A DNA stretch of 64,000 nucleotides from contig NZ_CP109473.1 of NCBI RefSeq assembly GCF_036227405.1, positions 8,494,001-8,558,000 of the forward strand. The letters are read 5' to 3'. The notes under the pieces were generated by a model, which was given only the letters and a program-made list of their open reading frames with translations, was not told the origin of the DNA and ran no database searches. Positions 19,601 to 25,600 of the stretch are shown in pieces. A program made the position numbers and the translations under genes. The stretch's first letter is position 1. Each line of letters opens with the position of its first letter. This DNA comes from Streptomyces sp. NBC_01460 (lineage in GTDB: Bacteria > Actinomycetota > Actinomycetes > Streptomycetales > Streptomycetaceae).

Positions 19601-22600
19601 GCGGGGCGCCGTCCAGCTCCAGCTGCATGTGGCCCCTGCCGGCGACCACGGGCTCCGCGCGGTGACCGTCCACTCCCGCCCCGAGGGCACCGACGAGGCA
19701 GCCTGGGCCCTGAACGCCTCGGGCCTGCTCGCCCCGCAGACCGCGCCGCCCGCCTTCGACCTCGCGGCCTGGCCGCCCCACGGCGCCGAACCGGTCCCGG
19801 TGGACGACGCCTACGCCCGGCTGGCGGCTCTCGGGTACGACTACGGGCCGGCCTTCCAGGGCCTGCGCGCGGCCTGGCGGCGCGGCGACGAGACGTACGC
19901 CGAGGTCGAACTGCCAGGCGAGGAAGCCGGCTTCGGCCTCCACCCGGCCCTGTTCGACGCCGCCCTGCACGCCGACGGCCTCGACGCGCACGGCCAGGGG
20001 ACGGCCCGGCTGCCCTTCGCCTGGACCGGTGTGTCGCTGTACGCGGCAGGGGCCACCGCCCTGCGGGTCCGCCTCCGCGGCGGCGACACGCTCTCCCTGG
20101 AACTGGCCGACCCCACCGGCGCCCCGGTCGCCTCCGTCGAGGCCCTGGTCTCCCGCCCGGTCGACGGCCGGGCGCTGGCCTCCCCGGTCCGCGCCGACGA
20201 CCTGTACCGGCTGGACTGGCCCCTGGTACCCGTACCGGATGCGGCGACTCCCGCCCACGCCGTACTGGACGGGAGGGGCGCGGCCGCGCTCGCACCGCTG
20301 CCCGACTGGGTGGTCCTGCCGGTGGCCGGCGGCGACGACCCGGTGGCATCGGTGCGCGAGGCGACCGAACGGGTCCTGACCGCCCTGAAGGACTGGCTGG
20401 CGGACGAACGGACCGCGGAGGCCCGCCTCCTGGTCCTCACCGGTGGCGCGGTCACCACCGGCGACGAGGGCGCCGTCGACCTGGCGGGCGCCGCCGTGTG
20501 GGGCCTCGTCCGCGCCGCCCAGGGCGAGCACCCGGACCGCATCGTCCTCGTGGACGGCGCCCCTGGCACGGCGGGCAGCGACGACGGCGACCGGATCGCC
20601 GACGCCGTCCGCGCCGCCGCGGCGAGCGGCGAACCGCAGCTGGCCCTGCGCGCAGGCACTGTCCGGGTGCCCCGGCTGGCCCGCGCCGTCGTACGGGGGA
20701 GCGCCGCCCCGCTCGACCCCGACGGCACCGTACTGATCACCGGCGGCACCGGCGTGCTCGGCGCCGTGGTCGCCCGGCACCTGGCCACCGGCCACGGCGT
20801 GCGCCGGCTGGTCCTGGCCGGGCGCAGCGGCACCGCCGCCGACGACTTCGCCGACCTCGCCGAGCAGGGCGTCCAGGTCGTCGTCGCCCGCTGCGACGCC
20901 GCCGAACACGACGAGCTGGCCGCGCTCCTGGCCGGCGTACCCGCGGCGCATCCCCTGACCGCCGTGGTGCACCTCGCGGGCGTCCTCGACGACGGACTGG
21001 TCACCGACCAGACCCCCGAGCGCCTGGACGCCGTGCTGCGGCCCAAGGCGGACGCCGCCTGGAACCTGCACGAGCTCACCCGGGACATGGATCTCGCGGC
21101 GTTCGTGCTGTTCTCCTCGGCCGCCGGCACCGTCGACGGAGCCGGACAGTCCGGATACGCCGCCGCCAACGCGTTCCTCGACGCCCTCGCCGCGCACCGG
21201 GCCTCCCTGGGGCTGCCGGCGCTCTCGCTGGCCTGGGGCTTCTGGGAACAGCGCACCGGCATGACCGCCCACCTCACCGACACCGACGTCGAGCGCATGA
21301 CGCGCGCGGGAGTCCGGCCCCTGCCCACCGAGGAGGGACTGCGGCTGCTCGACACCGCGCTCGCCGCCGACGAACCGCTGCTGCTGCCCATCGGCCTGGA
21401 CCTGCGTGCCCTGCGCGGCGCCGACGGTGTCCCGGCCCTGCTGCGCGGTCTGGTGCCCGCCCCCGCCCGCCGGGCCGCTGCCGCAAGGGCAGCCGGCGCC
21501 TCCCTGGCCGACCGGCTGGCCGCTCTGGGCCCCGCCGAACGGGACGCGGAGCTGATGGAACTGATCCGCACCCAGGTGGCCGCGGTCCTCGGTCACGGGA
21601 CCGACATGGTGCTCGACCCGCGCCGCTCCTTCCGCGAGGCCGGGTTCGACTCGCTGACCGCGGTCGAGCTGCGCAACCGGCTGGGCGGCGCCGTCGGCCT
21701 GCGGCTGCCCGCCACCCTCGTCTTCGACCACCCCGACGCCGACGCCCTGGTGCGATACCTGAGGACGGAACTCCTCGGCGACGCCGCGGACGCCCCCGGC
21801 ACCGCGGCACCGGAGACGGCCTACGCGGCGGACGAACCCGTGGCGATCGTCGGCATGGCCTGCCGCTACCCCGGTGGTGTCACCACCCCCGAGGAGCTCT
21901 GGCGGCTGCTCGCCGACGGCGGGGACGGCATCGGCGACTTCCCGGACGACCGGGGATGGGACCTGGACACCCTGTACGACCCGGAGCCCGGTAAGCCGGG
22001 CCACTGCAGCACCCGCTCGGGCGGATTCCTGTACGACGCCGCCGACTTCGACCACGACTTCTTCGGCATCGGCCCCCGCGAGGCCCTCGCCATGGACCCG
22101 CAGCAGCGGCTGCTGCTGGAAACCTCCTGGGAGGCACTGGAGCGCGCCGGCATCGACCCGCACAGCGTGCGCGGCAGCCGCACCGGGGTGTTCGCCGGCG
22201 TGATGTACCACGACTACGGCAGCCGACTGCGCGACGTCCCCGAGGCCGTCCGCGACTACCTCGGCAACGGAAGCCTCGGCAGCGTCGTCTCGGGCCGGGT
22301 CGCCTACGCCCTCGGCCTGGAGGGCCCCGCCCTCACCGTCGACACGGCCTGCTCCTCGTCGCTGGTGGCGCTGCACCTGGCCGCGCAGGCGCTACGACGG
22401 GGCGAGTGCACCCTGGCGATGGCGGGCGGAGTCTCCGTGATGTCGACCGTCGACACGTTCGTCGACTTCAGCAGACAGCGCAATCTCGCCGCGGACGGCC
22501 GCGTCAAGTCCTTCGCCGAGGAGGCGGACGGCACGGCCCTGTCGGAGGGCGTCGGTGTGCTGGTGTTGGAGCGGTTGTCGGATGCTCGGCGGTCGGGGCA

Positions 22601-25600
22601 TCGGGTGTTGGCGGTGGTGCGGGGGAGTGCGGTGAATCAGGATGGTGCGTCGAATGGTCTGACGGCGCCGAATGGTCCGTCTCAGCAGCGGGTGGTGCGG
22701 CAGGCGTTGGTGTCGGCGGGGGTGTCGGCTGCTGAGGTGGATGTGGTGGAGGCGCATGGGACGGGGACGGAGTTGGGTGATCCGATCGAGGCTCAGGCGT
22801 TGTTGGCTGTGTATGGGCGGGATCGGTCGGGGGATCGTCCGTTGTGGTTGGGGTCGGTGAAGTCGAACATCGGTCATGCGCAGGCGGCTGCGGGTGTGGC
22901 GGGTGTGATGAAGATGGTGTTGGCGTTGGGGGAGGGGGTGTTGCCGCGGACGTTGGGTGTGGGTGTGCCGTCGCGGAAGGTGGAGTGGGGTGCGGGGCGG
23001 GTTCGGTTGCTGGAGGTGGAGCGTCCGTGGGTGCGGGGTGAGCGGGTGCGTCGTGCGGGGGTGTCGTCGTTCGGGATCAGTGGGACCAATGCACACGTGA
23101 TCCTGGAGGAGGCCCCCGACGACGACACCGGCCCCCACACCGAGGCCGGGATCCAGGCCCCCCTGCTGCCCGTGGTCCTCTCCGGCGCCACCCCGGGGGC
23201 ACTGGCCGACCAGGCCGACCGGCTGCGCGCCGTCGCCGACGAGCGGATCACCGACCTCGTCCACTCCCTGTCCACGGGCCGTGCCGCCCTCACCCACCGG
23301 GGCGCGGTCGTCGCCCGTGACCGGGACGAACTGCTGGCCGGCCTGACCGCGCTGGCCGACGGCGCCACCAGCGACACCGTCGTGCGCGGCCGCCCCGTCG
23401 CCGGCCGCACCGCCTTCCTGTTCACCGGGCAGGGCGCCCAGCGGGCAGGCATGGGCCGTGGCCTGTACGACGCCCACCCCGCTTTCCGGCGGGCACTGGA
23501 CGAGGTGTGCGAGGCACTGGACGCCCACCTGGACCGCCCGCTGCGCGAGGTCATGTGGGCCGAACCGGGTAGCGACGCGGCCGGGTCGCTCGATTCCACG
23601 CTCTACACCCAGAGCGCCCTGTTCGCGGTGGAGACGGCCCTGTACCGCCTGCTGGAGTCCTACGGCATCCGCCCGGACCGGCTGGCCGGCCACTCCATCG
23701 GCGAACTGACCGCGGCCCACGTCGCCGGTGTCTGGGACCTCGCGGACGCGGCCCGGCTGGTCACCGCGCGCGGCCGGCTCATGCAGGCCCTGCCCGAGGG
23801 CGGCGCCATGCTCGCCGTGGACGCGGCCGAGGCCGAGGTGCTGCCGCACCTCGGCCCCGACCTGTCCTTGGCCGCCGTCAACGGCCCGCGCGCGGTCGTG
23901 GTCTCCGGTACGCGGGCGGCGGTTGAGGCGGTCGCCGCCGCCTTCGCCGACCGCCGCACCAAGCGGCTGCGCGTCAGCCACGCCTTCCACTCGCCCCTCA
24001 TGGACCCGATGCTGGCCGAGTTCGAGAAGGCCGCTCGCGAACTGAGTTACGCCGCGCCCACGATCCCCGTCGTCTCCGACGTCACCGGCACGTACGCCAC
24101 CGAGGACGAGCTGTGCTCGCCCGAGTACTGGGTGCGTCACGTCCGGGAGACGGTCCGCTTCGGGGACGCGATCCGCGCCCTGGAGGACGACGGCGTCCGC
24201 ACCTTCCTCGAACTCGGCCCCGACGCCGTCCTGTCGGCGATGGGCGCGCACGCCCTCGCCGACCCGGAGCGGTCGGTGTTCGTGCCGGCCCTGCGCCGTG
24301 AGCGTGACGAGGAGGTGACGCTCGCCGGGCTCGTCGCCGCCGCCCACGTCCGCGGTCTGCCCATCGACTGGCCGGGAGCTCACGCCGGGACCGACGCCCG
24401 CCGCGTCGACCTGCCGACGTACGCCTTCCAGCGACAGCGGCTCTGGCTGACGGACGGGCCCGGGACGGCCACCGACGCAAGCGGGCTCGGCCAGTCGCCC
24501 GCCGGGCACCCGATGCTCGGCGCCGCCCTCACCCTCGCCGCCGCCGACACCGTCGCGCTGACCGGCCGCCTCTCCCTGGCCACCCATCCCTGGCTGGCCG
24601 ACCACGCCGTCGCGGGGGTCGTCCTGGTCCCCGGCAGCGCCTTCGTGGAACTCGCCCTCCAGGCCGGCGACCGCGCAGGCTGCCCGCACGTGGAGGAACT
24701 CACCCTGGAGCGGCCGCTGGTACTTCCCCGCCACGGTTCCGTGCACCTCCAGGTGACCGCCGCGGCTCCCGGCACCGACGGACGCAGGCAACTGGCCGTG
24801 CACGCCCGGCCCGAGGGCACCGACGACGACTGGACCCGGCACGCCACCGGAGTCCTCGCCCCGCAGACCGCTCCCGAACCGGCCCCCGTCGCCGTGTGGC
24901 CGCCCGAGGGAGCCGTCCCCGTCGAGGTGAGCGGTCTGTACGGCCACCTCGCCGAGCAGGGGTACGGCTACGGCCCGCTGTTCCGCTGCCTGCGCGCCGC
25001 CTGGCGGCTCGGGGACGAGGTCTTCGCCGAACTCGCCCTCCCCGAAGCCGACGCGGCCGACGGCTTCGGACTGCACCCGGCGCTCCTCGACTCCGCGCTC
25101 CACGCCATCGACCTGCTCGACGGCCAGGACCCGACCGTCATGACCTTGCCCTTCGCCTGGGAGGGCGTCACCCTGCACGCCACCGGCGCCACCGCCCTGC
25201 GGCTGCGGCTCACCCCGCACGGCACCGACCACATGACCCTGGCCCTGTACGACGCCTCGGGCGCGCCGGTCGCCGAGGCGGCGTCGCTGCGCATCCGCCA
25301 GGTGACGGCCGAGCAGCTGAACGCCTCGGCCTCCGCCCCCGGTGACCTGTTCAGCGTGCGCTGGACCCCGGCGGAGGTGACCACCGACGGGGCGGCGGCC
25401 GAGCCCCGCACCCTGACCGTGACCCTGGACGACGCCTCGGACGCCGACCTGCCGGCCCGGGCCCGCGAGACCGCCGTACGCACCCTCGCCGCGCTCCAGG
25501 AGCACCTGGCCGGACCTGCGGACGGCACCCCCCTGGTCGTCGTCACCCGGTCCGCGGTCGCCGTCACCCCCGACGGGGCGCCGGACCCGGCCCAGGCCGT

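What the first reader, a model, noticed from the sequence alone, without database searches (positions are those of the whole stretch)
22552..23117. Foreign-codon KS tract shared almost perfectly by modules 4 and 10
Inside KS4 the DNA switches abruptly from C-ending codons to TTG/GTG/CGG/GGT/GAT for 566 bases, then back. The same tract sits in KS10 at 57421-57986 with one mismatch (22868/57737), though DNA on its left is not alike. Different codon use and near identity over 35 kb point to import of a KS segment from another lineage followed by very recent gene conversion (or the reverse order). It shows recombination at work inside KS domains without breaking the frame.
Basis: seen in the sequence. 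Interest (0 to 1): 0.7.

Follow-up and report, generated by a model that had tools for sequence, protein, structure and literature searches.

The report
Keto-rich repeat converting two KS domains
Two distant parts of one antibiotic-type gene cluster share a near-identical stretch of oddly coded DNA, a known kind of element called GRINS; relatives show that it is old, keeps being copied between the two sites within each species, and was more likely recoded in place than brought in from another bacterium.

Summary
In detail: 22552-23117 and 57421-57986 match at 565 of 566 bases. In the skew core only 3 of 147 codons that could end in C do so. [quoted passage not shown] The imported-segment reading is not supported. 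Orthologous clusters in other Streptomyces carry the tract in the same two KS domains. In three clusters compared base by base, the two copies within a genome are 97-99.8% alike while copies of different species differ by 6-9%. Trees of the KS DNA before the tract split by module; in the tract, 10 of 13 genomes pair their own two copies. This is concerted evolution by repeated gene conversion. Skew is graded over 13 orthologous clusters: five intense (one clade), eight weak or absent; it rises with homogenisation (rho 0.86). The recoding is described almost wholly by one parameter, keto (G,T) over amino (A,C) bases on the coding strand, and amino acids moved the same way (23 up, 1 down). I propose, untested, that NucS mismatch repair, which acts on G-G, G-T and T-T, biases the conversion.

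The parts
22552..23117 (+). Tract copy 1 (GRINS), C-terminal half of KS4 including the EAHGTGT and KSNIGHAQ motifs
   Evidence: 565/566 identical to copy 2; GC skew 0.49, TA skew 0.35 in 22531-23130
57421..57986 (+). Tract copy 2 (GRINS), C-terminal half of KS10
   Evidence: GC skew 0.50, TA skew 0.36 in 57391-57990
22552..23069 (+). Skew core of copy 1: 3 C-ending codons among 147 that could end in C
57421..57938 (+). Skew core of copy 2 (placed by alignment to copy 1)
21834..23120 (+). KS4 domain
   Evidence: tblastn span; Pfam PF00109/PF02801
56748..57986 (+). KS10 domain
16521..27146 (+). Bimodular type I PKS gene holding KS3 and KS4 (start codon not proven)
   Evidence: Pfam scan
56676..60521 (+). 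Last PKS gene: KS10-AT-ACP-thioesterase (start codon not proven)
   Evidence: Pfam scan

Best explanation
The tract is a GRINS element in a macrolactam-type PKS cluster. Shown: two KS C-terminal halves 35 kb apart, KS4 and KS10, are homogenised by gene conversion separately in each species, while the KS DNA before the tract evolves as ordinary orthologues. Shown: the codon change is a keto (G/T) over amino (A/C) bias on the coding strand, and amino acids differ from the orthologues in the same direction. Inferred: intense skew arose once, in place, in the ancestor of a five-genome clade, on a pair of sites already exchanging sequence. Inferred mechanism: conversion is keto-biased, and a keto-rich coding strand favours further exchange. 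It does not need a foreign donor.
For: GRINS criteria met (criteria read as passages of PMC9899208 and PMC10394414). Within-genome tract identity is 0.998 (window), 0.998 (G354) and 0.968 (HB132), against 0.91-0.935 between species; outside the tract orthologues are 0.86-0.97 and within-genome paralogues 0.63-0.86, leaving aside the 33 bp 23118-23150, where the two mix. In 13 clusters with both copies the DNA before the tract has paralogue identity 0.784-0.833 while the tract ranges from 0.768 to 1.0. The tract tree pairs KS4 with KS10 of the same genome in 10 of 13. Intense skew in 5 of 13, one clade (KS4 support 100, KS10 support 94). One keto parameter: lnL -998.4 against -1248.4 for C-avoidance and -987.5 for free base weights (A 0, C -0.08, G 2.72, T 3.14). 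Synonymous differences inside the clade's KS4 tract are 61% G/T against 3% before it. Of 31 consensus amino-acid differences from the orthologues, 23 raise keto content at codon positions 1-2, 7 are neutral and 1 lowers it. Copy pairs on opposite DNA strands in G387, G170, G349 and G057 suggest that the skew follows the coding strand (skew measured only in one copy each of G387 and G057).
Against: A plain protein tree of the tract places the skewed clade among foreign skewed tracts, with FastTree supports 0.43-0.72; I read this as attraction by composition, but an old import is not excluded. Weakly skewed clusters are also homogenised (S. spinosus 0.98 at GC skew 0.05-0.08), so intense skew is not needed for conversion. 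The skew-identity correlation rests largely on one clade; within the other eight rho is 0.71, p 0.047, uncorrected for relatedness. By AIC the free base-weight model is still better than the one-parameter keto model (1981 against 1999; 286 against 290). Protein divergence in the tract exceeds that before it in weakly skewed clusters too (0.105 against 0.049), not only in the clade (0.127 against 0.039).
Confidence: 0.78

Rival explanations
1. Import: a skewed KS segment from another lineage's GRINS replaced the segment in the ancestor of the five-genome clade, then spread to the second KS and was homogenised afterwards.
For: The plain protein tree of the tract groups the clade with foreign skewed tracts (supports 0.43-0.72; KS3 and KS6 of the window fall in the same part). 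Amino-acid identity to foreign tracts (71-80%) overlaps that to the orthologues outside the clade (75-81%). Three of four family-diagnostic residues are changed in the clade.
Against: Differences from the family consensus that do not raise keto content are 7-11 in the ten clade sequences, 10-23 in 27 foreign tracts and 15-35 in the other eight KS of the window. Skew-neutral distance favours the family: the nearest relative is family in 93% (window) and 80% (CB01580) of 500 bootstraps. Best listed foreign DNA match is 84% in 392 genomes and 81% in plasmids.
Confidence: 0.2
2. Keto-biased gene conversion driven by NucS (EndoMS) mismatch repair: heteroduplexes whose mismatches are keto-keto are corrected back, amino-amino ones escape; if the antisense strand of the donor pairs with the exposed coding strand of the recipient, coding-strand keto alleles accumulate. 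This is the mechanism I think most likely for the bias; it is nested in the best explanation, not exclusive of it.
For: In M. smegmatis oligonucleotides giving G-G, G-T and T-T mismatches were rejected over 500-fold and all other mismatches tested escaped (passages of PMC11551767); NucS also limits recombination between non-identical DNA (passages of PMC8228993). The genome has a NucS match (E 5.5e-43) and no MutS match. The bias is close to one keto/amino parameter, with G:T ratios near flank values, T being somewhat raised in Ala, Arg and Leu. GRINS are commonest in actinobacteria (PMC10394414).
Against: GRINS are also reported in cyanobacteria, firmicutes and some eukaryotes; the control genomes Synechococcus elongatus and Bacillus subtilis match MutS and not NucS. 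Loss of NucS raises transversions only a few-fold in mutation accumulation. Which strand invades is assumed. No experiment known to me links NucS with GRINS; the searches (4 of 4 papers listed; 5 of 5; 8 of 190 listed) showed none.
Confidence: 0.2
3. Skew first: a keto-rich coding strand is favoured because RecA filaments are most stable on TGG repeats, so such tracts recombine more and are kept.
For: TGG 56 per kb and GTG 77 per kb in the tract against 20 and 14 on average in the other eight KS, and 0 on the other strand; RecA monomers leave TGG repeats most slowly (PMC3763553, abstract and passages).
Against: Weakly skewed tracts are homogenised too; the RecA work saw no better filament nucleation on TG-rich DNA and is, as I understand it, on the E. 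coli protein; no Chi octamer is present.
Confidence: 0.2
4. Cytosine deamination on the exposed coding strand (R-loops) removes C.
For: Loss of C dominates: 200 C>G and 197 C>T synonymous differences, pooled over six orthologues compared with the window.
Against: Most four-fold codons go to G rather than T, Gly excepted; the C-avoidance model fits much worse than keto (lnL -1248 against -998).
Confidence: 0.07

Closest known systems
[quoted passage not shown] 2021 PNAS; paper not held, known here through passages of PMC9899208 and PMC10394414)
   Same: Duplicated region within one PKS, high identity, GC and TA skew above 0.25, tied to gene conversion
   Different: 566-600 bp against 'approximately 1 kbp'; here followed across 13 orthologous clusters, with weak, sub-threshold states at the same two sites
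Concerted evolution of PKS domains (passages of PMC4256081, rapamycin and other families)
   Same: Domains cluster by gene cluster rather than by module
   Different: Here limited to half a KS domain, with a left edge that varies little between clusters, and joined to nucleotide skew
NucS/EndoMS mismatch repair (passages of PMC11551767, PMC8228993)
   Same: Its mismatch set G-G, G-T, T-T is the keto-keto set that matches the direction of the bias
   Different: Not shown to act on these tracts; proposed here only

Membership tests
GRINS | Region of at least 500 bp with over 80% identity to another region of the same PKS (150-nt windows, step 30, five-window mean) | tested here: met
   22471-23190 and 56911-58020 at over 80%; 22531-23130 and 57391-57990 at over 90% (blastn used in place of Biopython pairwise2)
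[quoted passage not shown]
   0.49-0.50 and 0.35-0.36 in the two >90% regions; of 13 printed >80% regions (300 bp or more; 7 of them 500 bp or more) only the two that hold the tracts pass both thresholds
GRINS | Length about 1 kb | tested here: inconclusive
   566 bp near-identical; passes the 500-bp rule of PMC9899208, shorter than 'approximately 1 kbp' of PMC10394414
GRINS | Associated with gene conversion | tested here: met
Concerted evolution | Paralogues within a genome more alike than orthologues between genomes, against the flanking pattern | tested here: met
   weak or absent in S. silaceus and S. pyxinicus
Horizontally imported segment | A donor lineage closer than the cluster's own orthologues | tested here: not met
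   Best listed outside the family 84% in 392 genomes, 81% in plasmids; skew-neutral distance favours the family. Unsampled donors remain possible; the protein listings (120 of 1899 and 120 of 7982 shown) are ranked by whole multi-KS proteins and do not settle it
NucS-biased conversion | NucS present and MutS absent in the host | tested here: met
   MutL not settled (one search used a general ATPase model)
NucS-biased conversion | Bias lost without NucS | not testable with these tools
   needs a deletion strain

The most novel reading that the evidence does not exclude
GRINS are the footprint of keto-biased gene conversion: NucS, the actinobacterial mismatch endonuclease, filters heteroduplexes so that coding-strand G/T alleles win over A/C, and a keto-rich coding strand in turn promotes more exchange, a runaway that recodes KS domains and shifts their amino acids. 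This cluster family holds the stages of that process at one pair of sites.
Probability: 0.17. Interest if true: 0.85.

Novelty: new member of a known kind. Interest (0 to 1): 0.52.

Why it matters
How GRINS arise is, as far as I know, unexplained (recalled from the 2021 abstract, not read here). Here one pair of sites can be followed through 13 orthologous clusters from unskewed to intense, with gene conversion present in several weakly skewed ones. The bias comes close to one keto/amino parameter, which points to a specific repair enzyme and gives a simple deletion test. The proteins differ along with the codons, which matters for anyone using KS boundaries to engineer PKS.

Tried and rejected
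Rejected as unlikely: assembly collapse (copies and flanks differ; the complete SirexAA-E chromosome record has both). Disfavoured: replication-strand skew (opposite-strand pairs in G387, G170, G349, G057). Rejected as sole driver: plain C-avoidance, G-only or T-only enrichment, GC-content or purine bias. G-quadruplex motifs of the three-G type and the Chi octamer: none in the tract; the two-G type is more frequent than in KS8 (59 against 16 overlapping matches). Two deep protein searches restricted to the tract were ranked by whole multi-KS proteins; best listed identities were 81% and 80%, but the 92% relative of SirexAA-E was not listed either, so they say nothing about a donor. The test of shared T-ending sites between weakly and strongly skewed clusters gave a Mantel-Haenszel odds ratio of 2.0: weak, and uncorrected for relatedness; it does not decide between intensification and decay. 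In one search, 17 of 27 foreign loci were dropped because the KS DNA before the tract was itself poor in third-position C; 10 were used. The 27 foreign loci were best matches to a skewed query, so their skew (27 of 27 with GC skew 0.32-0.55) is not a survey. (PF13589) was meant for MutL but the model is a general ATPase (14 of 14 control genomes match); no use was made of it.
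Full report
OBSERVATION. The two tracts are exact as described: 565 of 566 bases identical, one C/T mismatch. In the 20-codon blocks wholly inside the skew core third-position C is 0-0.1, against 0.25-0.9 on either side. In the core 3 of 147 codons that could end in C do so; log10 P is -74.1 under codon usage of the cluster's own PKS genes, codons taken as independent. GC skew reaches 0.45-0.50 in 500-bp windows over the tracts, where the window as a whole has mean -0.08 and standard deviation 0.09; these are the only two places with 500-bp GC skew above 0.25. 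The left edges of skew and identity coincide within a codon; skew stops near 23069, identity at 23117, with 82% over 23118-23150.

SURROUNDINGS. It holds a type I PKS with ten KS. KS4 belongs to the second module of a bimodular gene, KS10 to the last module, KS-AT-ACP-thioesterase. The tract covers the C-terminal half of the KS, after the DTACSSS active-site region, up to the NAHVILEEAP motif.

KNOWN KIND. I recalled GRINS as a lead and then tested it. The original paper is not held. [quoted passage not shown] Passages of PMC10394414 give about 1 kb, identity often over 90%, skews over 25%. With the same window sizes the tracts give identity 0.99, GC skew 0.49/0.50, TA skew 0.35/0.36. Of 13 printed regions of over 80% identity (7 of them 500 bp or longer), only the two that hold the tracts pass both skew thresholds.

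NOT A RECENT IMPORT. Among 392 same-genus genomes, 358 match the tract; G354 and G029 each have two copies at 91-93%, about 34.8 kb apart. Their clusters are collinear with the window at 91-92%. Inside the tract the copies within a genome are 0.998, 0.998 and 0.968 alike, but copies of different genomes only 0.91-0.935. Outside the tract the pattern is reversed: orthologues 0.86-0.97, within-genome paralogues 0.63-0.86, leaving aside the 33 bp 23118-23150 where both mix. So each lineage homogenised its own pair.

GRADED FAMILY. A cluster-specific query found named orthologues: HB132, SirexAA-E, [Kitasatospora] papulosa, S. silaceus, CB01580, S. pyxinicus, S. spinosus; others came through. With the fetched regions 13 clusters have both copies, a fourteenth (G016) only KS10; papulosa is left out because its contigs end inside the tract. 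KS DNA before the tract: KS4-KS10 identity 0.784-0.833 in all 13. Tract: window 0.998, G354 1.0, Sirex 1.0, CB01580 0.996, spinosus 0.98, G362 0.98, HB132 0.97, G180 0.961, G254 0.946, G377 0.883, G145 0.855, pyxinicus 0.83, silaceus 0.768. GC skew: 0.45-0.50 in window, G354, HB132, Sirex, CB01580; 0.18-0.20 in G362; 0.16 in silaceus KS4 and -0.10 in its KS10; -0.03 to 0.12 in the rest; -0.15 to -0.05 in the other eight KS of the window. Skew and tract identity correlate (Spearman 0.86, n 13; 0.71, p 0.047, in the eight not intensely skewed); skew and identity before the tract do not (-0.28, p 0.35). Neither test corrects for relatedness. The left edge of the homogenised stretch is at the same codon in six of the 13 and about 15 bp further in for three more; in the least homogenised clusters no edge can be drawn.

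TREES. Before the tract, KS10 sequences form one clade (support 100) and KS4 another (69). In the tract, 10 of 13 genomes have their two copies as sisters; of the nine with a printed support eight have 94-100 and one (G145) 34; G362 and pyxinicus are paraphyletic and silaceus is separate. The five intensely skewed clusters form one clade before the tract (KS4 100, KS10 94). One gain there needs fewer steps than an intense ancestor with losses in G377, silaceus and the remaining group; this is parsimony, not proof. At 98 codons with a conserved amino acid the clade ends in G or T at 0.97, the other orthologues at 0.55; the other window KS are at 0.28 over the tract, so the whole family is somewhat keto-shifted at these sites.

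IN PLACE OR IMPORTED. A plain protein tree puts the skewed clade with foreign skewed tracts (supports 0.43-0.72), which speaks for import. But of 31 consensus differences between the clade and its orthologues, 23 raise keto content at codon positions 1-2, 7 are neutral, 1 lowers it. The differences that do not raise it number 7-11 in the ten clade sequences against 10-23 in 27 foreign tracts and 15-35 in the other eight window KS. On skew-neutral residues alone the window tract is nearest to G362 and spinosus (0.032), then G377 (0.033) and its own KS8 (0.040), with the best foreign tract at 0.057; the nearest is family in 93% of 500 bootstraps (CB01580: 80%). In-place recoding is favoured, not proven.

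NATURE OF THE BIAS. Codon choice in ten foreign skewed tracts with normal DNA before them (17 others dropped) was modelled as flank usage times a weight per base. One keto weight gives lnL -998.4; avoid-C -1248.4; T only -1668.7; G only -1736.8; free weights -987.5 with A 0, C -0.08, G 2.72, T 3.14. The family clade (window and CB01580) gives the same order (-143.7, -294.5, -449.4, -458.2; free -140.0 with C 1.13, G 6.49, T 6.85). The free model keeps a small AIC advantage in both, so the single parameter is a close approximation. Synonymous differences within the clade's KS4 tract are 61% G/T exchanges against 3% before the tract. So G and T are exchanged freely while A and C are largely kept out. 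Polarity seems to follow the coding strand: in G387, G170, G349 and G057 matching copy pairs lie on opposite strands; skew was measured in one copy of G387 and one of G057.

MECHANISM. Shown: recurrent conversion; keto bias; amino-acid differences in the same direction. Inferred: the bias comes with the conversion. NucS repairs G-G, G-T and T-T mismatches and leaves the rest, with the incoming strand corrected in the oligonucleotide assay (PMC11551767, passages); it also limits recombination of non-identical DNA (PMC8228993, passages). The genome has a NucS match and no MutS match. If antisense donor DNA pairs with an exposed coding strand, a recipient coding-strand keto base is protected and an amino base can be converted, which gives the observed direction. 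RecA stability on TGG repeats (PMC3763553) and the tract's TGG and GTG density (56 and 77 per kb against 20 and 14) would add feedback, though that idea prefers the coding strand as the invader. Which strand invades is unknown. Searches for NucS with biased gene conversion (5 papers) and GRINS with mismatch repair (8 of 190 listed) showed no paper that joins the two; these were listings only.

VERDICT. Real, not a likely artefact, and of a known kind; concerted evolution of PKS domains is also known (PMC4256081, passages). What is added is the family-wide series, the separation of conversion from intense skew, and the near one-parameter keto rule with a testable candidate cause.

Noticed in passing
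1079-2602 and 4286-5572 (+): AMP-binding enzyme and glutamate (methylaspartate) mutase E chain upstream of the PKS suggest a 3-methylaspartate-derived beta-amino acid starter, as in vicenistatin-type macrolactams (passages of PMC10662134 and PMC11284099). Product not identified.
   Followed up: partly
27453-30359 (-): Large ATPase regulator with a LuxR-type (GerE) domain on the opposite strand between PKS genes.
   Followed up: no
61511-63999 (+): ABC transporter ATPase followed by a FtsX/MacB-type permease running off the window.
   Followed up: no
46294-47535 (+): KS8 is the unconverted KS of the window closest to the tract (0.766 aa; skew-neutral distance 0.040) and falls near the family's weakly skewed tracts in the protein tree: perhaps an older exchange partner.
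   Followed up: partly
L150 and L049 (S. silaceus): KS4 tract moderately skewed (0.16) while KS10 is not (-0.10), the clearest case of two decoupled copies.
   Followed up: partly
L011-L037: All 27 best-match loci outside the cluster family are keto-rich KS tracts (GC skew 0.32-0.55); in 17 of 27 the KS DNA before the tract is also poor in third-position C.
   Followed up: partly
L048 start and L161 end ([Kitasatospora] papulosa): Two draft contigs end inside the tract, one at each copy by position, so GRINS may be a cause of broken PKS assemblies.
   Followed up: yes
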